Source of the DNA: Isoptericola sp. BMS4
Lineage (GTDB): Bacteria; Actinomycetota; Actinomycetes; Actinomycetales; Cellulomonadaceae
Assembly (NCBI RefSeq): GCF_011634835.1
Contig: NZ_SIRP01000001.1
Span: 2,847,511 to 2,911,510, forward strand
Direction of reading: 5' to 3'
DNA: 64,000 nt
A program made the translations under genes and the position numbers. Position 1 is the stretch's first letter; each line of letters begins with the position of its first letter. The notes beneath the pieces were generated by a model. It was not told the origin of the DNA and did not search any database. It was given only the letters and a program-made list of their open reading frames with translations. This document shows positions 54,947 through 64,000 of this stretch, one piece after another.

Positions 54947-56038
54947 ATGGCCGAGCGCAGCGAGCACGTGCCGACACTCGTGATCGGCGGCGGGCAGGCG
55001 GGCCTCGCGGTCGCGCACCACCTGCGGGCCCGCGGCAGCGAGTGCCTCGTCGTCGAGGCGAACGCCCGGGTCGGCGACAGCTGGCGCCGGCACTGGGACT
55101 CGATCCGGCTGTTCACCCCCGGCCGGTACGACGGACTGCCGGGCATGCGGTTCCCGGGGGACCCCCGGCGGTACCCCGGCAAGGACGACATGGCGGACTA
55201 CCTCGAGGCGTACGCCGCCGAGCAGGACCTCCCCGTGCGGCTCCGCACCCGGGTGGACCGCCTCGGCGCAGGCCCCGACGGCGGCTTCGTCGCCTCGGTC
55301 GGCACCGCCGAGATCACCTGTGAGCACGTGGTGGTCGCGACCGGCACGTACACCGGGCGACCGCGGGTCCCGGCGTGCGCTGCCGAGCTCGCGCCGGGGG
55401 TCCGGCAGCTGCACTCCAGCGAGTACCACCGGCCGTCGGACCTGCTGCCGGGGCCCGCGCTCGTCGTCGGCGCGGCGAACTCCGGCTGCGAGATCGCGTT
55501 CGAGCTCGCCGCGGACCGGCGCGTCGTCCTGTGCGGGCGGGACCCGGGTCACGAACCGTTCCGGCCCGGCACCGCCGCGGACAGGCTGGCCGTGCCGGCG
55601 ACCGTCTTCGTCGCCCGGCACGTCGCCACCCGCCGCGGGCCGCTGGGCCGCCGCCTGCTGACGTTCCGGCACCACGGCATCCCTGTCGGCCGGGTCCGGG
55701 CGAAGGACCTGCGGGCGCGGGGCGTCGAGAAGGTCGAGGCCCGCATGACCGGCGTCGAGGGAGGGATGCCCGCGCTCGGCGACGGCAGCGTGCACGAGGT
55801 CGCGAACGTGGTGTGGTGCACGGGGTTCGCGCCGGACTACGGGTGGATCGACCTGCCCGCGTTCGACGACGACGGCTTCCCGCGCGAGTACCGAGGGATC
55901 GCCGACGACGTGCCCGGCCTGTACTTCTGCGGGCTCGTGCTGCAGCACTCCGTCGCGTCGTCGGTGCTGCCGGGCGTCGGCCGGGACGCGGCGTTCGTGG
56001 CCCGCGCGCTCACAGCAGCCCCAGAGCGACCGCGATGA
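54947..56038 (+). CDS. Flavin-containing monooxygenase-like NAD(P)/FAD oxidoreductase
   Basis: A 363-residue flavoprotein related to CzcO/ArsO-type monooxygenases. FAD motif G-G-G-Q-A-G at 11-16, then R-V-G-D-S-W-R-R-H-W near 39-48, G-T-Y-T-G-R-P near 134, NADP motif V-G-A-A-N-S-G near 176-182, and C-T-G-F-A-P-D-Y near 290. The canonical F-x-G-x-x-x-H-x-x-x-Y/F motif appears as V-R-Q-L-H-S-S-E-Y. ATG at 54947 has AAGGAGG upstream. Its last 29 bases overlap the convergent crtEb gene. Substrate unknown; expression probably depends on the LuxR protein before it. Confidence 0.85.
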   Translation: MAERSEHVPTLVIGGGQAGLAVAHHLRARGSECLVVEANARVGDSWRRHWDSIRLFTPGRYDGLPGMRFPGDPRRYPGKDDMADYLEAYAAEQDLPVRLRTRVDRLGAGPDGGFVASVGTAEITCEHVVVATGTYTGRPRVPACAAELAPGVRQLHSSEYHRPSDLLPGPALVVGAANSGCEIAFELAADRRVVLCGRDPGHEPFRPGTAADRLAVPATVFVARHVATRRGPLGRRLLTFRHHGIPVGRVRAKDLRARGVEKVEARMTGVEGGMPALGDGSVHEVANVVWCTGFAPDYGWIDLPAFDDDGFPREYRGIADDVPGLYFCGLVLQHSVASSVLPGVGRDAAFVARALTAAPERPR

Positions 56039-56939
56039 GGAGCTGCGTCACGAGGAACCCGCTGACCATGTTCAGCCAGAGGAACCGGCGCCACCCCGGC
56101 CGGGCCCGCTCGCACTCCTCGTCACGGAGCCGGCGGTACGGCGCGATGCTGAACAGGTACGGCAGCGGGACGACCGCGGCGAGCAGGGCCGGCCACCCCG
56201 CGGCCGCCATCGCCACGGCCGCGAGCGCGTAGCCCGCCATCGCCGCCCGCACCGTGGCGCCGGCGCCGAGCCATGTGGCGACCGAGGCGATGCCGGCCGC
56301 CCGGTCGGCGACGACGTCCTGCACGGCACCGAACGCGTGCGAGGCCATCCCCCACAGGAAGAAGGCCACGAGGGTCGCGACCGCGGTCCGGCCCGGCTCG
56401 GCGCCCGCGAGCGCGAGGCCGAACACGGCGGGGCTGACGAAGTGCGTGCTGGACGTGACGGAGTCCAGCACCGGGCGCTCCTTGAACCGGAGCACGGGGA
56501 CGGAGTAGGCGACGACGGCGACGACGCTCACGGCGAGCACCGCCGTCGACGCCGGCGTCCCGGCCAGGACAAGGAACACCAGGAAGGGCGCGTTGGCCAG
56601 GCCGGACGCCCACAGCACCGTGCGGTGCCAGGCCCGGTCCAGCACCACGCCCTCGACGCCGCCCTTGCGGGGGTTGCGCAGGTCCGACTCGTAGTCGAAG
56701 ACGTCGTTCACCCCGTACATCAGCAGGTTGTACGGGATCAGGAAGTACAGCGCGCCGACCACGAGGACGGCGTCGAGACCACCGCCGCCCAGCAGGTAGG
56801 CGGCCGCGAACGGGTAGGCCGTGTTGACCCAGCTGATCGGGCGGGACGCTCCCAGGAGCTGGGCGAGGACGCCGCCCGGCACCGACCGCGAGACCCCGGC
56901 CGACGCGCCTGCCGAGCCCGACGGGGCCGGCGCGCTCAC
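56010..56939 (-). CDS. crtEb: Lycopene elongase/hydratase-type UbiA prenyltransferase
   Basis: A 309-residue UbiA-family membrane enzyme. Prenyl diphosphate motifs are N-D-V-F-D-Y-E-S-D (78-86) and D-V-V-A-D (208-212); eight or nine helices fill the rest. As last gene of a carotenoid operon beside crtYe/crtYf it should add two dimethylallyl units to lycopene, giving C50 flavuxanthin, as CrtEb in Corynebacterium glutamicum or CrtE2 in Micrococcus. GTG start overlaps the crtYf stop (GTGA). Confidence 0.9.
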   Translation of the reverse strand: MSAPAPSGSAGASAGVSRSVPGGVLAQLLGASRPISWVNTAYPFAAAYLLGGGGLDAVLVVGALYFLIPYNLLMYGVNDVFDYESDLRNPRKGGVEGVVLDRAWHRTVLWASGLANAPFLVFLVLAGTPASTAVLAVSVVAVVAYSVPVLRFKERPVLDSVTSSTHFVSPAVFGLALAGAEPGRTAVATLVAFFLWGMASHAFGAVQDVVADRAAGIASVATWLGAGATVRAAMAGYALAAVAMAAAGWPALLAAVVPLPYLFSIAPYRRLRDEECERARPGWRRFLWLNMVSGFLVTQLLIAVALGLL

Positions 56940-57265
56940 GCCGCCTCCTCACGCGCGGGTCCCCCGCGACCGCCGAGCAGCTGCCACACCGCGGGGAGCA
57001 GGAGCGCCGCGGCCAGGGGCCAGGCGAAGTCCTCCACGGGCGCCGCGCCGACACGCAGCCCGCTCAGCGCGGCCTCGTCGAACCGGTAGAGGTCGGCCGC
57101 GATCATGAGCGAGTCGAAGACCGCCGTGAGGACGACGAGCGCGGCGGCCACGAGCACGACGCTCCCCCACCACCGGGCACCCGGCCGCACCCGGACCGCG
57201 CACACCAGGGCCACCACCGCCGCGACGACGACGACGCCGCACGCCAGCCAGCCGTAAGAGCTCAT
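56936..57265 (-). CDS. crtYf: C50 carotenoid cyclase subunit
   Basis: A 109-residue membrane protein with three hydrophobic helices. V-F-D-S-L-M-I-A-A-D-L-Y-R-F-D near 49-63 matches the conserved core of the lycopene cyclase subunit family, and P-V-E-D-F-A-W-P near 76-83 is the P-x-E-D/E-x-x-x motif of these cyclases. Works as a heterodimer with the product of the preceding gene to form the end rings of a C50 carotenoid. Whether rings are epsilon (decaprenoxanthin) or gamma (sarcinaxanthin) cannot be told. ATG overlaps the crtYe stop. Confidence 0.85.
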   Translation of the reverse strand: MSSYGWLACGVVVVAAVVALVCAVRVRPGARWWGSVVLVAAALVVLTAVFDSLMIAADLYRFDEAALSGLRVGAAPVEDFAWPLAAALLLPAVWQLLGGRGGPAREEAA

Positions 57266-57612
57266 CGACCCACCTCCTGCTCACGACGGGCGCGAGCCGA
57301 CCGCCGCGCGCCGAACCGTTCGGCGACACCCCACAGCACCATCGTGAGGTAGCACAGGAACGTCACGAAGACGACCTCCTCGATCGGCAGGTGCGGCAGG
57401 ACCTCGATCCCGCTCAGGGCCGCGCCGCCTCCGCGACCGTAGAACCCGAGCGCGATCGCCGCGAGGTCGGCGAGCAGGAAGAACACCACCCCGCACGCGA
57501 CGGTGACGGCGGCGCGGCGGGGCGTGGCGAACGCGAACAGGCGCCACCGCCGGTCCACGGCGGCCGTCCCCGCCACGGACACCAGGAGACACGCCAGGTA
57601 CAGCCACCTCAT
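57262..57612 (-). CDS. crtYe: C50 carotenoid cyclase subunit
   Basis: A 116-residue membrane protein with three helices, the partner of crtYf. D-R-R-W-R-L-F near 20-26 and L-P-I-E-E-V-V-F-V near 76-84 are the family signatures (the latter being the P-x-E-E motif). Heterodimeric cyclases of this type occur in actinobacteria and arose from the same ancestor as the archaeal and fungal CarRA cyclase domain. ATG at 57612 overlaps the crtI stop by four bases (ATGA). The C-terminal tail is basic. Confidence 0.87.
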   Translation of the reverse strand: MRWLYLACLLVSVAGTAAVDRRWRLFAFATPRRAAVTVACGVVFFLLADLAAIALGFYGRGGGAALSGIEVLPHLPIEEVVFVTFLCYLTMVLWGVAERFGARRSARARREQEVGR

Positions 57613-59180
57613 GCCGGCTCCGGCAGCGGGCCCGCGGACCTGTCCCCGCGCAGCCGCTTGAGGACGAGCTCCGCGCTGATCAGGCACATCGGCAGGCCGA
57701 TCCCCGGGATCGTGCTGGCCCCGGCATAGTAGAGGCCGTCCACGGCCCGGGAGGCGTTGCGTCCGCGCAGGAACGCGCTCTGTCGCCACGTGTGGGCCGG
57801 GCCCAGCGCTCCCCCGGACCAGGCGTGCAGGTCCGCGGCGAAGTCGCCCGGGCCGACCGTGCGCCGCAGGACGACGCGCTCGGCGAGGTCGTGGACGCCG
57901 GACCACTCCGCGACCAGCGTGACCGCGGCGTCCGCCACCCGCTCGACGGCGGGGTCGCCGGCGCCGTCGAGCCCGCCCCGGCCGAGCCGCGGGTCGGCCG
58001 GCACGGGAACGAGCACGAACAGGTTCTCGAACCCGTCGGGGGCGACCGTCGGGTCGGTCGCCGACGGGCGGCAGACGTAGCAGGAGGCAGGGTCCGGCAC
58101 CCGCTTCTGCGCACCGAAGACGTCGTCGAAGTTCCGTTCCCAGTCGCGGGTGAAGAAGAGCGAGTGGTGGGCCAGCTCCGGCAGCGCGCCGCGGACCCCG
58201 AGATTGACCAGGACGGCGCCCGGCCCGGGGTCGCGTCGCTCCCACCAGGGCTCCGGGTAGGTCTGCACCTCGGGCGGCAGCAGCGCGGTCTCGACGTGGT
58301 GCAGGTCCGCGGCGCCCACGACGACGTCGGCGGCGAGGAACCGCTCATGGCCGTCCTGCCGGAACCGGACGCCGGTGGCCCGGGCACGCCCGCGCGACGG
58401 CGTCGTCGTCGTGACGGCCGTGACCGTCGCGCCCGTGCGCAGGCGGGCGCCCTCCTTCTCGGCACGCGCGGCGATCGCCTCGACGACGCGGGCGAACCCG
58501 CCCCGCGGGTAGCGCACGCCGTCGACCAGGTCGAGGTGGCTCATCATGTGGTACATGCTGGGCGCCCGGTCCGGCGACGACCCGAGGAAGACGGCCGGAT
58601 ACCCGAGGATCTGACGGAGCCGCCGGTCGGAGAACGACCGCGCGACGAAGGTGTCCAGCGTGGTGCGCAGGAGGGAGACCAGGCGAGGCGCGCTCGCCAG
58701 GACCTCGCGGCGCAGGAACGGCACCGGCGACTCGAAGCTCGTGTAGAGGAAGCTGCGCGTCGCGACGTCGTGCACCTCGCGCGCCGACGCGAGGTAGCGC
58801 TCGAGCCGGGCCCCTGCCCCGGGCTCGAGCGCCTCGAACGTCGCGACGTTGGCCGCCACGTCGGCGCGCACGTCCACGGGGCGCTCGTCGCCCTCGAAGA
58901 AGACGCGGTACCCGGGGTCGAGGACGTCGAGGTCCAGCTCGGCCTCGGCCGTCGTGCCCAGCAGGCGGAAGAAGTGGTCGAAGGCCTCGGGCATCAGGTA
59001 CCAGGACGGACCGGTGTCGAAGCGGAACCCGTCCTGGGACCAGGAGCCCGCACGGCCGCCGAGGTGCTCCTGCTGCTCGAGCAGCTCCACGTCGTACCCG
59101 TCGCGCGCCAGCAGGGCGGCGGTCGCGAGCCCCGCGACACCGCCGCCGACGACGACCGCCCGCCGGGGCGTGCCCGTCAC
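57609..59180 (-). CDS. crtI: Phytoene desaturase
   Basis: A 523-residue CrtI-type FAD enzyme that converts phytoene to lycopene. The dinucleotide motif is V-V-V-G-G-G-V-A-G-L near 9-18, followed by L-G-G-R-A-G-S near 40; S-S-P-D-R-A-P-S-M-Y near 216 and the C-terminal signature D-G-L-Y-Y-A-G-A-S-T then P-G-I-G-L-P-M complete the family pattern. GTG start overlaps the crtB stop by four bases, and its own stop overlaps crtYe. Membrane-associated, uses oxygen or quinone as acceptor. Confidence 0.95.
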   Translation of the reverse strand: MTGTPRRAVVVGGGVAGLATAALLARDGYDVELLEQQEHLGGRAGSWSQDGFRFDTGPSWYLMPEAFDHFFRLLGTTAEAELDLDVLDPGYRVFFEGDERPVDVRADVAANVATFEALEPGAGARLERYLASAREVHDVATRSFLYTSFESPVPFLRREVLASAPRLVSLLRTTLDTFVARSFSDRRLRQILGYPAVFLGSSPDRAPSMYHMMSHLDLVDGVRYPRGGFARVVEAIAARAEKEGARLRTGATVTAVTTTTPSRGRARATGVRFRQDGHERFLAADVVVGAADLHHVETALLPPEVQTYPEPWWERRDPGPGAVLVNLGVRGALPELAHHSLFFTRDWERNFDDVFGAQKRVPDPASCYVCRPSATDPTVAPDGFENLFVLVPVPADPRLGRGGLDGAGDPAVERVADAAVTLVAEWSGVHDLAERVVLRRTVGPGDFAADLHAWSGGALGPAHTWRQSAFLRGRNASRAVDGLYYAGASTIPGIGLPMCLISAELVLKRLRGDRSAGPLPEPA

Positions 59181-60085
59181 GACCGGCCCCCGAGAACGAG
59201 GGCGCGCACCAGGATCCACGCCTTGCCCGCCGCGGGCACCCGCACGCGCGTGCGTCGCAGACGGCCCGGGGGCACGCGGCGCAGCCGGCGCGAGAGCGCG
59301 GCGAACAGCCCGTGGGCCGCGCCCACCGCCCGGCGGCTGCTGCGCGGCAGGCGCGCCACGGCGGTCGCGGCGACCGCGAGGTCGGCGTCGATGTCGTCGA
59401 GGATCTGGTCCCGGCGCGCGGCGTCGAGGCGCCCGCCGGTCCCCGGGAGGTAGGTCCGGCCCCGCAGGTCCTCGTCGGCGCCCAGGTCGCGCAGGAAGTT
59501 GACCTTCTGGAACGCCGCGCCGAGCCGCCGCGCCCCCGGGGCGAGATCGTCGTAGTCGGCCCGGTCCGCCGCGTCCGGGGCGGCGACGAACACCCGCAGG
59601 CACATCAGGCCGACCACCTCGGCGGACCCGTACACGTAGTCGGCGAGCGTGTTCTCGTCGTGGCTCGTCACGCTGAGGTCGGTGCGCATGGACGCGAAGA
59701 AGGGCCGGATCAGGTCGGACCCGATCCCGCACTCGCGCGCCGTCAGCGCGAAGGCGTGCACGACGAGGTTGGTGCTGCGGCCGGTCGCCACGGCGTCGAG
59801 GGTCTCGGCCTCGAGCGCGTCGAGCTGCGCCCCGGTCCGGGGGTCGCCCGCGGCCGGCCCGTCGACGAGCTCGTCGGCCACGCGGACGAGGGCGTACACG
59901 TCACGCACGTGGGTCCGGACGGGCTCCGCCAGCAGCCGGCAGGCCCAGCCGAACGACGTCGAGTAGCCGGCGATGACGGCGCGGGCGCTGCGGCGGGCGA
60001 CCCGGTCGTACAGGGGGTCCGCCGGGACGCTCGCCGCGGTGACGGGGACGGCCGACGCGGCACGGGCCTCGGTCCGGGCGGTCAT
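59177..60085 (-). CDS. crtB: Phytoene synthase
   Basis: A 302-residue squalene/phytoene synthase that condenses two geranylgeranyl diphosphates to phytoene. Asp-rich motifs are D-E-L-V-D (71-75) and N-F-L-R-D-L-G-A-D-E-D (195-205); the start Y-S-T-S-F near 41-45 is also conserved. Ends with a basic R-R-L-R-R-V-P-P-G-R tail common to actinobacterial members. ATG overlaps the crtE stop (ATGA). Confidence 0.95.
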   Translation of the reverse strand: MTARTEARAASAVPVTAASVPADPLYDRVARRSARAVIAGYSTSFGWACRLLAEPVRTHVRDVYALVRVADELVDGPAAGDPRTGAQLDALEAETLDAVATGRSTNLVVHAFALTARECGIGSDLIRPFFASMRTDLSVTSHDENTLADYVYGSAEVVGLMCLRVFVAAPDAADRADYDDLAPGARRLGAAFQKVNFLRDLGADEDLRGRTYLPGTGGRLDAARRDQILDDIDADLAVAATAVARLPRSSRRAVGAAHGLFAALSRRLRRVPPGRLRRTRVRVPAAGKAWILVRALVLGGRS

Positions 60086-61131
60086 GCCGCCTGCCTGAGC
60101 ACGCCGCGGGTGCGGTCGTCCAGCCAGTCGAGCAGCTCGGTAGGCAGCCCCACCTCCGCGGCCAGCCTGAGTGCGGCCTCGAGCCGGTCCCGCGCGACGT
60201 CCTCCACGAAGCGCCGCGAGCCGCTCTCCTCCAGCAGCGCGCACACGCGGTCCGCCTGCGCCGGGGTGAGCGACGACGACCCGTGCAGCGGGGCGATGGA
60301 GGCCCACTGCGGGGTGGAGCGAGCATGGGCGACGAGCAGCGTCACCCGTCCCTGACGGAGGTCGGTGAGGCGGCTCTTGCCGCTGCGCTCCTCGTCGCCG
60401 AACGTCCCGATGAGATCGTCCTGGAGCTGGAACGCGAGGCCGGCGAGCCGCCCCACGTCCCCCAGCCGCTCGACGACGTCCGGCCCCGCCGCGGCGAGAA
60501 GGGCTCCGGCCTGCAGGGGAAGCGCGAAGGAGTAGGCCGCCGTCTTGCGCTCGGCCGCGGCGACCACCTCCTCGACGGTGGCCTCGCCGACGCCCGCGGA
60601 GAGACCGACGTCCGCCAGCTCGCCCGCGGCGCTGACGTGCACGGCGCGGTCGACGAGGTCGTACAGCCGCCGGAGGGTGGCCGGCGGCGCGCCGCACAGC
60701 GCGATCGCGCGCAGCGCCCCCGCCAGGGCCAGGTCGCCCGCGAGGATGCCCGCGGTGTCCGCGTAGGCGCGCTGGCCCGGCTCTCCGGCTCCCGCGTCCC
60801 GGGCGCGGCGCGCCGCCGCGCCGGACACGTTGGGGCGGCCGCGCCGGGTGCGGTCCCCGTCGATCACGTCGTCGTGGGCGACGAACGCGGTGTGCAGGAG
60901 CTCGACGGCGGCGCCGACGTCGGCGGCGAGGCGCCGGTCCCGGCCGCCGTACGCCAGGTACGTCGCCGTGAGCAGCGCCGGGCGGAACCGCTTGCCGCCG
61001 GACGTCGATTCCGCCACGTCCGACCACAGGTCGCGGTAGGGGTCCCCGAGGTCGCGGGAGATGACGTCCCCGCGCCGGGCGAACTCGCGCAGCGCGGGCG
61101 AGGGGTCGAGCCGCGGCACCGTCGCCGTCAT
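60082..61131 (-). CDS. crtE: Geranylgeranyl diphosphate synthase
   Basis: A 349-residue trans-prenyltransferase. First Asp-rich motif D-D-V-I-D (87-91) with the aromatic or small residues before it that set chain length, second motif D-D-L-I-G-T-F-G-D (238-246), and G-G-K-R-F-R-P at 45-51 binding isopentenyl diphosphate. Supplies C20 diphosphate to phytoene synthase. In C. glutamicum the CrtR repressor senses this product. ATG overlaps the idi stop (ATGA). Confidence 0.95.
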   Translation of the reverse strand: MTATVPRLDPSPALREFARRGDVISRDLGDPYRDLWSDVAESTSGGKRFRPALLTATYLAYGGRDRRLAADVGAAVELLHTAFVAHDDVIDGDRTRRGRPNVSGAAARRARDAGAGEPGQRAYADTAGILAGDLALAGALRAIALCGAPPATLRRLYDLVDRAVHVSAAGELADVGLSAGVGEATVEEVVAAAERKTAAYSFALPLQAGALLAAAGPDVVERLGDVGRLAGLAFQLQDDLIGTFGDEERSGKSRLTDLRQGRVTLLVAHARSTPQWASIAPLHGSSSLTPAQADRVCALLEESGSRRFVEDVARDRLEAALRLAAEVGLPTELLDWLDDRTRGVLRQAA

Positions 61132-61709
61132 CGGAGCGGCTCCGGCCAGGTCTCGGACGTGCCCCGGGACCCGCGCAGCTCGGGCACCTGCGCCACCGAC
61201 CAGGGGCTCAGTATCCACGGCGCCACGTCCACCAGGACCTCCACGTCCTCGATCCGTACCCAGCGTAGGTCCATGATCTCGTCCGGGTGGGGCTCCGGAT
61301 CGGCCTCGGAGGAGGCGAAAAATACGGGACAAACCTCGTTCTCCACCACGCCCCCGGCATCGACGGCGCGGTAGCGGAAGTCCGGGAGCACCACGTCCAC
61401 GGTGTCGAGGTCCATCCCGAGCTCGTGGCGGGCGTGCCGGCGGACGGCGTCCTGCAGGGCCTCCCCCTCGCGGGGATGACCGCAGAAGGAGTTGGTCCAC
61501 ACCCCGGGCCAGGTGCGCTTGGACAGCGCCCGCCGGGTGAGCAGCAGCTCCCCGTCGGGGCGGAAGAGGTAGCAGGAGAACCCGAGGTGCAGGGGTGTGT
61601 CACGCGTGTGGACGGTCGCCCGTGGCGCCGTCCCCGCGGGGGCACCCTCCTCGTCGAGCAGGACCACGTGGTCGGGGGTGTCGGCACCCAACGCTCTCCA
61701 CCTCCGCAT
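61128..61709 (-). CDS. idi: Isopentenyl-diphosphate delta-isomerase, type 1
   Basis: A 193-residue Nudix-fold isomerase interconverting isopentenyl and dimethylallyl diphosphate, the two building blocks used by crtE and crtEb. Catalytic Cys76 is in T-N-S-F-C-G-H-P and the acidic site is E-N-E-V-C (about 123-127); metal His residues near 34 and 41. First gene of the carotenoid operon. ATG at 61709 stands 13 bases from a CTAGCC palindrome and seven from TTATTT, with no ribosome binding site, so translation is probably leaderless. Confidence 0.92.
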   Translation of the reverse strand: MRRWRALGADTPDHVVLLDEEGAPAGTAPRATVHTRDTPLHLGFSCYLFRPDGELLLTRRALSKRTWPGVWTNSFCGHPREGEALQDAVRRHARHELGMDLDTVDVVLPDFRYRAVDAGGVVENEVCPVFFASSEADPEPHPDEIMDLRWVRIEDVEVLVDVAPWILSPWSVAQVPELRGSRGTSETWPEPLR

Positions 61710-61722
61710 GTCGACCAAATAA

Positions 61723-61735
61723 CTAGCCCGGCTAG
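61723..61735. promoter_or_regulatory. CrtR-type operator 1 (carotenoid operon/regulator)
   Basis: CTAGCC, C, GGCTAG: a perfect 6-1-6 inverted repeat between idi and the divergent MarR gene. Read towards idi it is GCTAGCCGGGCTAGTTA, nearly the same as operator 2 at 62329-62341. It lies just upstream of, or over, the -10 region of the carotenoid operon. Confidence 0.75.
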
Positions 61736-61760
61736 CAATAAGGAAAGGTAGCATCGAACC

Positions 61761-62294
61761 ATGCCGCTCACCAGTCCACGCCCGTACTGGTACGACGACG
61801 ACCGTGCGGTCGTCGCCGTCCTCGAGGCGCTGCGCCGGTTCCGGCGCGCGGACCAGGAGATGCGCACGCGGATCAGCGCCGGCATGCGGATGAACGTGAC
61901 GGACCTGCAAGCGCTGCGGTTCGTCATCGCCGCGGAGCGCCGCGGCACGGCCACGACTCCCCGTGCGCTGGCCGAGCACCTGCACATCTCGACGGCATCG
62001 ACCACCAAGCTGCTCGACCGCCTCGCCGCCTCGGGGCACCTCGTCCGGGAGCCGCACCCCACCGACCGCCGCTCGCTCGTCGTCGTCGCCACCGACCACG
62101 CGCACCACGAGGTGCGGGAGCGCCTGGCCCGCATGCACGAGGAGATGGCGCAGATCGCCCACGACATCCCCCCCGCGGCCCGTCCGTCCGTCGAGCAGTT
62201 CCTGCTCGCCATGGCGGACCGGCTCGAGCAGGAGGGCGACGTCGAGCCCCTGCGCCCCGACCCGCACCTCGACGGCCCGAGCCCGACCGCCTGA
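61761..62294 (+). CDS. MarR family regulator of carotenoid genes (CrtR-like)
   Basis: A 177-residue MarR-type winged-helix protein: T-P-R-A-L-A-E-H-L-H-I-S-T-A-S-T-T-K-L-L as HTH (about 70-90) and the wing R-E-P-H-P-T-D-R-R-S. It is divergent from the carotenoid operon, the same arrangement as crtR in Corynebacterium, whose product represses crt genes and is released by geranylgeranyl diphosphate. Family and position make this function likely. ATG follows TAGCAT by six bases (leaderless); operator 1 is immediately upstream. Confidence 0.88.
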   Translation: MPLTSPRPYWYDDDRAVVAVLEALRRFRRADQEMRTRISAGMRMNVTDLQALRFVIAAERRGTATTPRALAEHLHISTASTTKLLDRLAASGHLVREPHPTDRRSLVVVATDHAHHEVRERLARMHEEMAQIAHDIPPAARPSVEQFLLAMADRLEQEGDVEPLRPDPHLDGPSPTA

Positions 62295-62328
62295 CCTGGA
62301 GGAGGGCTCCCGCGCGGCGCGCATATCG

Positions 62329-62341
62329 CTAGCCAGGCTAG
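62329..62341. promoter_or_regulatory. CrtR-type operator 2 (SDR-DUF2867 gene)
   Basis: CTAGCC, A, GGCTAG: perfect 6-1-6 inverted repeat, next to TAACAT (62342-62347), the -10 of the downstream gene. Sequence, flanks (G before, TNA after) and distance to the start codon match operator 1, so the same protein should bind both. Confidence 0.75.
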
Positions 62342-62353
62342 TAACATTGCCTC

Positions 62354-63874
62354 ATGCCTCCCACCCCGCAGGCACGCAGCCGACCGAGCGCCGGCGACCT
62401 CGTCCTGGTCACCGGCGCCACGGGCTACATCGGCGGCAGGCTGGTCCCGGAGCTCCTCGACGCCGGCTACGCCGTCCGCGTGCTGGCACGCCACCCCGAG
62501 CGGATCGCCTCGCGGAGCTGGGCCGACGACGTCGAGGTCGTCCCCGGCGACGCGACCTCCCGCGACGACCTGCGCCGGGCCCTCGCCGGGGTCGACGTCG
62601 CCTACTACCTCGTCCACGCGCTCGGTGCCGGGCGAGGGTTCGCCGACCGTGACCGCGCCACCGCGCGGGGCTTCGCGACCGTGGCCCGGGAGCGAGGCGT
62701 GCGCCGCGTCGTCTACCTGGGCGGCCTGCACCCCGCCGACGAGCGGCTGTCGCCCCACCTGGAGTCGCGGCGTGAGGTCGGCGAGATCCTCCTCGACGGC
62801 GGCGTGCCCACGGTGGTGCTGCGGGCCGCCGTGATCCTCGGCTCCGGCAGCGCGTCGTTCGAGATGATGCGCTACCTCACCGAGCGCCTGCCCGCGATGG
62901 TCGCCCCGCGCTGGATCGACAACCGCATCCAGCCGATCGCCGTGCGCGACGTGCTGCGCTACCTGGTGGGGGCCGCGAGCATCCCGTCCGACGTCAGCCG
63001 GGCCTTCGACATCGGCGGGCCCGACGTGCTGACGTACCGCGAGATGATGCAGCGGTACGCCGCGGTGGCGGGACTGCGCCCCCGGGTGATCCGCGCCGTC
63101 CCCGTGCTGACGCCCGGGCTGGCGAGCCACTGGGTGGGGCTCGTGACCCCCGTGCCCCCGGCCATCGCCCGCCCGCTCGTCGGCTCGCTCGTGCACGAGG
63201 TCGTCACCCAGGAGGACGACATCAAGGCCTACGTGCCCGACCCCCCGGAGGGCATGCTGGGCTTCGACGCCGCGGTCGAGCTCGCGCTGACGCGGATCCG
63301 CGACCTGGACGTGCGCACGAGCTGGACGTCTGCCTCGACGCAGGGCGCGCCGTCGGACCCGCTCCCCCAGGACCCGGACTGGGCGGGCGGCAGCCTTCTC
63401 GTGGACGACCGCTCCCGCGAGGTGCGCACCACTCCCGAGGCGCTCTGGACGGTCGTCGAGGGCATCGGCGGCGCGCACGGCTGGTACTCGTGGCGTCTCG
63501 GCTGGGTGGCCCGAGGGGCCATGGACAGGCTCTTCGGCGGCCCGGGGCTGCGCCGCGGGCGCCGGCACCCGCACCGGCTCGCCCCCGGCGACGCCCTCGA
63601 CTGGTGGCGGGTGGAGGCCGTCGAGCCCGGGCACCTGCTGCGCCTGCGCGCGGAGATGCGGCTGCCCGGCCTCGCCTGGCTCGAGCTCTCCGTGGAGCCG
63701 GGCGACCCGTACCCCACGTTCCGCCAGCGCGCGATCTTCTACCCCCGGGGCCTGCTCGGCCAGGCGTACTGGTGGGCGATCAGCCCGTTCCACGGCATCG
63801 TCTTCGGCGGCATGCAGCGCAACATCGCCCGCGCCGCCGAGGCCGGACCGCGCGGAAAGGCCCACGACAAGTGA
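62354..63874 (+). CDS. Atypical SDR (NAD(P)-binding) fused to DUF2867
   Basis: A 506-residue protein. Residues about 15-300 are an atypical short-chain dehydrogenase/NmrA-like Rossmann domain with V-T-G-A-T-G-Y-I-G-G (19-28) and Y-Y-L-V-H near 84; the classical Y-x-x-x-K is not evident. The C-terminal part (about 345-495) is DUF2867, with E-A-L-W-T-V-V-E-G-I-G-G near 361-372 and R-Q-R-A-I-F-Y-P-R-G-L near 458-468. Function unknown. ATG at 62354 follows TAACAT by six bases. A CrtR-type operator in front ties it to carotenoid control, perhaps in modifying pigment, quinone or lipids. Confidence 0.85.
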   Translation: MPPTPQARSRPSAGDLVLVTGATGYIGGRLVPELLDAGYAVRVLARHPERIASRSWADDVEVVPGDATSRDDLRRALAGVDVAYYLVHALGAGRGFADRDRATARGFATVARERGVRRVVYLGGLHPADERLSPHLESRREVGEILLDGGVPTVVLRAAVILGSGSASFEMMRYLTERLPAMVAPRWIDNRIQPIAVRDVLRYLVGAASIPSDVSRAFDIGGPDVLTYREMMQRYAAVAGLRPRVIRAVPVLTPGLASHWVGLVTPVPPAIARPLVGSLVHEVVTQEDDIKAYVPDPPEGMLGFDAAVELALTRIRDLDVRTSWTSASTQGAPSDPLPQDPDWAGGSLLVDDRSREVRTTPEALWTVVEGIGGAHGWYSWRLGWVARGAMDRLFGGPGLRRGRRHPHRLAPGDALDWWRVEAVEPGHLLRLRAEMRLPGLAWLELSVEPGDPYPTFRQRAIFYPRGLLGQAYWWAISPFHGIVFGGMQRNIARAAEAGPRGKAHDK

Positions 63875-63890
63875 AAGTAAGTGCTTACTT
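63875..63890. promoter_or_regulatory. TetR-type operator at the window edge
   Basis: AAGTAAG, TG, CTTACTT: perfect 7-2-7 inverted repeat overlapping the stop codon region of the preceding gene and lying before TAGGGT (63895-63900), the -10 of the TetR gene. Likely autoregulatory site. Confidence 0.6.
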
Positions 63891-63907: not shown

Positions 63908-64000
63908 ATGAGCCCGCACCGTCCTCCCGAGACCCGCGCACGCATCCTCACCGAGGCCATGCGCCTCTTCGGCGAGAACGGCTTCGCCGCGACCCGCGTC
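63908..64000 (+). CDS. TetR family regulator, N-terminal fragment
   Basis: Only 31 codons are in the window: T-R-A-R-I-L-T-E-A-M-R-L-F-G-E-N-G-F-A-A-T then R-V, the first helices of a TetR DNA-binding domain. The gene continues beyond 64000. ATG at 63908 follows TAGGGT by seven bases, so it is probably leaderless and controlled by the palindrome at 63875-63890. Confidence 0.85.
   Translation, partial: MSPHRPPETRARILTEAMRLFGENGFAATRV

What the first reader, a model, noticed from the sequence alone, without database searches (positions are those of the whole stretch)
61723..62353. Two matching 6-1-6 operators suggest a CrtR regulon that includes an SDR-DUF2867 gene
CTAGCC-N-GGCTAG occurs at 61723-61735 in front of the carotenoid operon and again at 62329-62341 in front of the SDR-DUF2867 gene. 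Read towards each target the flanks also agree (GCTAGCCRGGCTAGTWA), and the distance to the start codon is 13 and 12 bases. The gene between is a MarR regulator placed like crtR of Corynebacterium, which senses geranylgeranyl diphosphate. The second site adds a gene of unknown function to the predicted carotenoid regulon.
Basis: partly seen in the sequence, partly recalled or inferred. Interest (0 to 1): 0.78.

Follow-up and report, generated by a model that had tools for sequence, protein, structure and literature searches.

The report
Carotenoid repressor sites also control SDR
Two matching DNA switches, one before a pigment-making operon and one before a little-studied enzyme gene, are probably both bound by the regulator encoded between them, so the enzyme likely belongs to the cell's light-protection programme.

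Summary
CTAGCC-N-GGCTAG lies at 61723-61735 (between idi and a MarR gene) and 62329-62341 (before SDR-DUF2867). These are the only two exact copies in the 4.43 Mb genome and its only two CTAG-N5-CTAG arrangements. The motif looks like the MarR protein's own operator: 66 of 91 distinct marR promoters of relatives have it with at most 2 mismatches (shuffles: 0.75), and 23 of 24 family genomes with an exact copy encode the MarR. The SDR site is conserved too: on a tree of 92 SDR-DUF2867 proteins, 17 of 17 in the window's clade have it and 0 of 75 others, also in Promicromonospora, where no marR lies beside the gene. In Promicromonospora 34 of 35 sites of a related pattern lie before carotenoid, idi, photolyase, pyrimidine-dimer glycosylase, MMPL, SDR/TspO-like or marR genes. 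The regulon reading is supported. Binding, GGPP sensing and the enzyme's reaction are untested, and the TTAA motif published for C. glutamicum CrtR is absent here. DUF2867 is predicted to have a START/Bet v 1-like fold. A new variant of the known CrtR system.

The parts
61723..61735 (.). Operator 1, CTAGCC-C-GGCTAG, between the divergent idi (13 bases) and marR (25 bases) start codons
   Evidence: one of only two exact copies in the genome
62329..62341 (.). Operator 2, CTAGCC-A-GGCTAG, 12 bases before SDR-DUF2867
   Evidence: conserved in 17 of 17 SDR genes of the clade, the window's included
61761..62294 (+). MarR-family regulator (crtR-like), 177 aa
   Evidence: PF12802 and PF01047 above cut-off
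62354..63874 (+). SDR-DUF2867 protein, 506 aa: NAD(P)-binding SDR domain plus a START-like domain
   Evidence: PF13460 and PF11066 above cut-off; models and fold searches
61128..61709 (-). idi, isopentenyl-diphosphate Delta-isomerase, first gene of the carotenoid operon
   Evidence: NF002995 248.8 bits, cut-off 127
60082..61131 (-). crtE-like polyprenyl diphosphate synthase
   Evidence: PF00348 above cut-off; no NCBIfam model above its cut-off
59177..60085 (-). crtB-like phytoene synthase
   Evidence: PF00494 above cut-off; no NCBIfam model above its cut-off
57609..59165 (-). crtI-like phytoene desaturase (start codon not certain)
   Evidence: TIGR02734 556 bits, cut-off 238.1
57262..57612 (-). 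presumed first lycopene cyclase subunit (crtYe-like); coordinates approximate
   Evidence: position only; no Pfam hit
56936..57265 (-). lycopene cyclase domain protein (crtYf-like)
   Evidence: PF18916 and TIGR03462 above cut-off
56010..56939 (-). UbiA-type prenyltransferase (crtEb-like); suggests a C50-type carotenoid
   Evidence: PF01040 and NF009608 above cut-off
62342..62347 (+). TAACAT, -10-like hexamer 6 bases before the SDR ATG, next to operator 2; suggests a leaderless promoter
   Evidence: read by eye; the sigma-70 scan finds no promoter
61749..61754 (+). TAGCAT, -10-like hexamer 6 bases before the marR ATG
   Evidence: read by eye; not found by the scan

Best explanation
The MarR protein is a CrtR-type autorepressor whose dimer binds the palindrome CTAGCC-N-GGCTAG. 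[quoted passage not shown] at 62329-62341 it blocks SDR-DUF2867. An inducer, presumably GGPP or another isoprenoid diphosphate that rises in the light, releases it, so pigment enzymes and the SDR-DUF2867 protein are made together. That protein, an NAD(P)-binding SDR domain joined to a START-like domain, probably acts on or binds a lipophilic isoprenoid or photo-oxidised molecule. Supported by comparison: the motif is an operator tied to this MarR clade and the SDR gene is a conserved target. Inferred: physical binding, repression, the inducer, the light link and the SDR's activity.
For: Only two copies in the genome, both here. 66 of 91 distinct marR promoters have a site with at most 2 mismatches, shuffles 0.75. 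23 of 24 family genomes with an exact copy have the MarR at E 1e-20, which 66 of 150 genomes have (Fisher p 7.7e-9, not corrected for kinship). 23 of the 27 exact places lie at marR, idi/crt, SDR or MMPL genes. Residues 79-88 of the regulator are nearly invariant in 62 regulators with such a site. SDR: 17 of 17 in the clade with the site, 0 of 75 outside, one change on the tree; 25 of 26 in the wider clade have the site or a marR in the held flank, 1 of 66 outside. Promicromonospora group: 34 of 35 sites at the same functional set. Brachybacterium has the SDR gene inside the crt operon. All six Isoptericola strains listed in PMC6739363 make pigment in response to light.
Against: No binding or expression data. 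25 of 91 marR promoters have no site with at most 2 mismatches, 18 of them beside idi/crt-linked regulators by the grouping (which has 86 rows). Only 4 of 15 other same-genus genomes have an exact copy, and most same-genus SDR genes belong to another clade without the site. The published CrtR motif (TTAA) is absent. Four of 27 exact places have no gene of the set beside them. The 17-row clade itself has support 94, under the star; the 18-row set with Occultella has 100.
Confidence: 0.85

Rival explanations
1. The sites are real operators but are bound by another factor (MerR/LitR, TetR or other) that controls the same genes.
For: No binding test exists; marR is itself often next to idi/crt, so co-occurrence is partly confounded.
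Against: The site stands in marR's own promoter also where the neighbour is a UV-repair or MMPL gene: 14 of 14 such regulators have at most 2 mismatches. Only 1 of the 24 genomes with an exact copy lacks the MarR. The putative recognition helix is nearly invariant.
Confidence: 0.08
2. Operator 1 works, but operator 2 is a leftover of a local duplication and does not control the SDR gene.
For: The two sites are 606 bp apart and share flanking letters.
Against: 17 of 17 SDR genes of the clade keep a site, with other letters in the centre and poorly conserved flanks (mean information 0.57 and 0.50 bits before and after), also where no marR lies in the held flank. The eight CTAG columns are conserved by the way rows were chosen, but no row of the clade failed the choice.
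Confidence: 0.05
3. The palindromes act as RNA (terminator or attenuator) rather than as protein sites.
For: The scan lists one terminator-like hit over operator 1 on the minus strand.
Against: Similar sites serve divergent genes on both strands at varying distance, and the stem is short (6 pairs).
Confidence: 0.02

Closest known systems
CrtR of Corynebacterium glutamicum and tested orthologues (PMC5401885: passages and one section; PMC7432914: abstract and passages; PMC6739363: passages)
   Same: MarR-type repressor divergent from isoprenoid/carotenoid genes; P. nicotinovorans crtR is divergent from idi as here; autoregulation; regulator/MMPL neighbourhoods
   Different: Published motif is TTAA-centred, here a CTAGCC-N-GGCTAG palindrome; published regulon is the crt operon, crtR and possibly cg0726, without an SDR target in what I read; GGPP response not tested here
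CrtR of Mycobacterium kansasii (PMC9861118: passages and one section)
   Same: MarR-type repressor of crt, mmpL and an idi-type gene (fni); light also induces a photolyase-tspO-mmpL locus, a company like that found here in Promicromonospora
   Different: Paper leaves open whether CrtR controls the photolyase locus; no operator given in the passages read
LitR/CarH light clusters, e.g. Pseudomonas mendocina pmlR1 region (PMC9758184: passages)
   Same: A short-chain dehydrogenase lies with a photolyase and an FAD-dependent oxidoreductase, as in Antribacter L117 here
   Different: MerR-type regulator; kinship of that dehydrogenase with SDR-DUF2867 not tested

Membership tests
CrtR (MarR-type carotenoid repressor) | MarR_2 (PF12802) winged-helix domain | tested here: met
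   48.2 bits, cut-off 27
CrtR (MarR-type carotenoid repressor) | Gene divergent from crt operon, idi or mmpL | tested here: met
   divergent from idi-crtEBI
CrtR (MarR-type carotenoid repressor) | Operator in the shared promoter region of crt genes and crtR | tested here: met
   by sequence and conservation only; binding untested
CrtR (MarR-type carotenoid repressor) | Published TTAA-centred binding motif | tested here: not met
   no TTAA in either intergenic region; some relatives have TTAA in the flank of the palindrome
CrtR (MarR-type carotenoid repressor) | Sequence orthology to C. glutamicum CrtR | not tested
   that protein's sequence was not retrieved
CrtR (MarR-type carotenoid repressor) | GGPP releases it from DNA | not testable with these tools
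   needs gel shift
Short-chain dehydrogenase/reductase (SDR) | Rossmann fold with a glycine-rich TGxxGxxG motif | tested here: met
   G21, G24, G27 in 41 of 41; Pfam; fold
Short-chain dehydrogenase/reductase (SDR) | Catalytic YxxxK | tested here: inconclusive
   H135, S138 and R139 are invariant in 41 of 41 where I would place YxxxK; the placement is by eye from recalled SDR motifs
START / Bet v 1-like (SRPBCC) fold for DUF2867 | Fold match of the domain folded alone | tested here: met

The most novel reading that the evidence does not exclude
In this family of actinobacteria a CrtR-type MarR protein is not just a carotenoid repressor: through one palindrome it runs a photoprotection regulon of pigment synthesis, UV-damage repair (photolyase, pyrimidine-dimer glycosylase), MMPL export, a TspO-like membrane protein and a two-domain SDR-START protein of unknown chemistry, released together by an isoprenoid signal made in the light. 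In the window's own genome only the pigment operon, the regulator and the SDR gene carry the site.
Probability: 0.5. Interest if true: 0.68.

Novelty: new variant of a known kind. Interest (0 to 1): 0.55.

Why it matters
In C. glutamicum CrtR was reported to act on little more than one site and one operon (PMC5401885, passages). A clear palindromic operator makes its regulon readable across a family, joins light-induced pigment with UV repair in Promicromonospora, and gives a first handle on SDR-DUF2867, a term that one paper of the searched library holds, on osteopontin by its title and abstract.

Tried and rejected
Two-mismatch scan of the own genome: 204 hits on the forward strand, only the first places listed, many GC-rich; not usable. 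CTAG-N5-CTAG as a family-wide pattern: too loose, 120 of 150 genomes have a match, some 14 to 29, and the listing was cut. A fixed 12-13 base distance: not conserved. Sigma-70 promoters: none found. Solved structures of the MarR: general MarR proteins; the top row (6xr1, a designed protein) was disregarded as it matches 38 residues. PDB matches of the whole SDR model cover only the SDR domain and give no substrate; the top rows are complex I chains, which I take from recall to be NDUFA9. The own-genome homologue of the TspO-like protein (C1:3627706, 46%) has no CTAG-N5-CTAG and no copy with 0-1 mismatch; weaker sites were not looked for. Exact places without a gene of the set beside them: G086, one of two in G014, G097 C29:209278, G120. 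Literature: no paper holds any of four spellings of the 13-mer; searches on CrtR with photolyase and on LitR were seen as listings, with passages read in five papers (and those cited).

The 91 marR promoters are those with at least 33% identity, 80 aligned residues and 220 bases upstream, near-copies dropped. Rows of the SDR tree come from loci L056-L084 and L115-L194; matches under 380 residues and near-copies were dropped. Of the 66 rows outside the wider clade 12 come from loci with about 1.5 kb flanks and 54 from named loci with up to 4 kb, so marR linkage may be undercounted. The motif table uses only sites with at most 2 mismatches, which inflates its core.

Full report
What is there. 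On the minus strand the window holds idi and crtE-, crtB-, crtI-, crtYf- and crtEb-like genes, with a presumed crtYe between crtI and crtYf that has no Pfam hit; on the plus strand a MarR regulator (61761-62294) and SDR-DUF2867 (62354-63874). CTAGCC-N-GGCTAG occurs at 61723-61735, between the divergent idi and marR genes, and at 62329-62341, before the SDR gene.

Chance. The 4.43 Mb genome has two exact copies and two CTAG-N5-CTAG arrangements, the same two. The pattern read backwards gives 6 and 364, but has another make-up and is only a rough yardstick. From the frequency of CTAG in the window 0.24 are expected. One mismatch adds one place, with none of the tested genes in the 3 kb held around it.

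Conservation at the regulator. Of 150 family genomes 24 have an exact copy, at 27 places; 4 of 15 other same-genus genomes are among them. 23 of the 27 places lie at marR, idi/crt, SDR or MMPL genes. 23 of the 24 genomes encode the MarR at E 1e-20, which 66 of 150 genomes have (Fisher p 7.7e-9, kinship not accounted for). Of 91 distinct marR promoters from family and order 66 have a site with at most 2 mismatches and 25 do not; shuffles give 0.75. Among 86 regulators grouped by their divergent neighbour, 45 of 63 beside idi/crt, 14 of 14 beside MMPL or a pyrimidine-dimer glycosylase and 3 of 9 others have such a site. In the 62 with a site, residues 79-88 (ASTTKLLDRL here) are nearly invariant, from 50 to 62 of 62 per position. 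This is what an autoregulatory operator looks like.

Conservation at the SDR gene. On a tree of 92 SDR-DUF2867 proteins the window's clade of 17 (support 94; 18 rows with Occultella, 100) has a CTAG-N5-CTAG site with at most 2 mismatches in 17 of 17; 0 of 75 others do; one change of state suffices. With the two-mismatch rule alone one other row, L173, would pass, through GC-rich letters before its start. In the wider clade of 26 rows, 25 have the site or a marR in the held flank; outside it 1 of 66 does. Promicromonospora SDR genes have no marR in the held flank but keep CTAGCCTATCTAG or a near variant. In Occultella glacieicola the SDR gene directly follows marR, and in Brachybacterium it lies, with a TspO-like gene, inside the crt operon. 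Against a general rule, most same-genus genomes have an SDR homologue of another clade (66 to 70% identical) without the site: the link belongs to this clade, not to every SDR-DUF2867 gene.

The wider regulon. In 13 genomes of the Promicromonospora group, CTAGCCWRKCTA has 35 distinct places in 12 genomes (37 rows; two places are listed on both strands). 34 of the 35 lie before crtB, idi, photolyase (2), pyrimidine-dimer glycosylase, MMPL, SDR with a divergent TspO-like gene (8) or marR; the exception is G097 C29:6562. The pattern read backwards gives 47 forward matches summed over the 13 genomes, so the count alone says little; the agreement of targets is the evidence. All nine SDR genes of this genus found in the family search keep a site. 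Glycosylase, photolyase and MMPL names rest on Pfam. The TspO-like protein scores below Pfam's cut-off in one case and has no hit in another, so its name is tentative.

Mechanism. For SDR and marR a TANNNT hexamer stands 6 bases before the ATG (by eye), which suggests leaderless promoters that a bound repressor would cover; the sigma-70 scan found no promoter. Reports that CrtR proteins are released from DNA by GGPP (PMC5401885, PMC7432914) and that six Isoptericola strains make pigment in the light (PMC6739363) make an isoprenoid-released, light-linked switch likely. None of this was tested on this protein.

Compared with print. CrtR is known as repressor of crt genes and of itself. Its published motif is TTAA-centred; none is present here, though some relatives have TTAA in the flank of the palindrome, so the two descriptions may overlap. 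A legend in PMC5401885 lists phr and 'epi, putative NDP sugar epimerase' among genes near crtR; the SDR gene may have been drawn there, but I could not see the figure. In C. [quoted passage not shown] In M. kansasii light induces crt, mmpL, fni, crtR and a photolyase-tspO-mmpL locus, with the role of CrtR in the latter left open. I found no report of this operator or of SDR-DUF2867 in the searched library, which lacks most subscription journals.

Verdict. Observation confirmed; the regulon reading is supported by comparison of genomes; binding, ligand and enzyme function remain open.

Noticed in passing
window 63875-63890 and 63908-64000: An inverted repeat AAGTAAG-TG-CTTACTT just after the SDR stop, in front of a TetR-like gene that runs off the window: a likely TetR autoregulatory site.
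   Followed up: partly
L297:4419-5816: A transposase-like reading frame about 2 kb beyond the window end, after the TetR-like gene and an epimerase-like gene; named from the look of the translation only.
   Followed up: no
L298, L302, L309, L310, L317, L324, L325, L330, L331: A pyrimidine-dimer DNA glycosylase gene starts next to the operator in Promicromonospora-group genomes, often divergent from a marR paralogue.
   Followed up: yes
L299, L321: Operator-like sites 53 bases before photolyase genes in two Promicromonospora-group genomes.
   Followed up: partly
L143:2374-9470: Brachybacterium crt operon idi-crtE-SDR-TspO-like-crtB-crtI-crtYe-crtYf: the SDR gene lies inside the operon.
   Followed up: yes
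L288, L291, L293: Order-level marR promoters with a different palindrome, TTGCTAG-ATAAT-CTAGCAA or close to it, at the same place: perhaps a variant operator.
   Followed up: no
L117:6300-9058: In Antribacter an FAD amine oxidase gene and a photolyase gene follow the SDR gene.
   Followed up: partly
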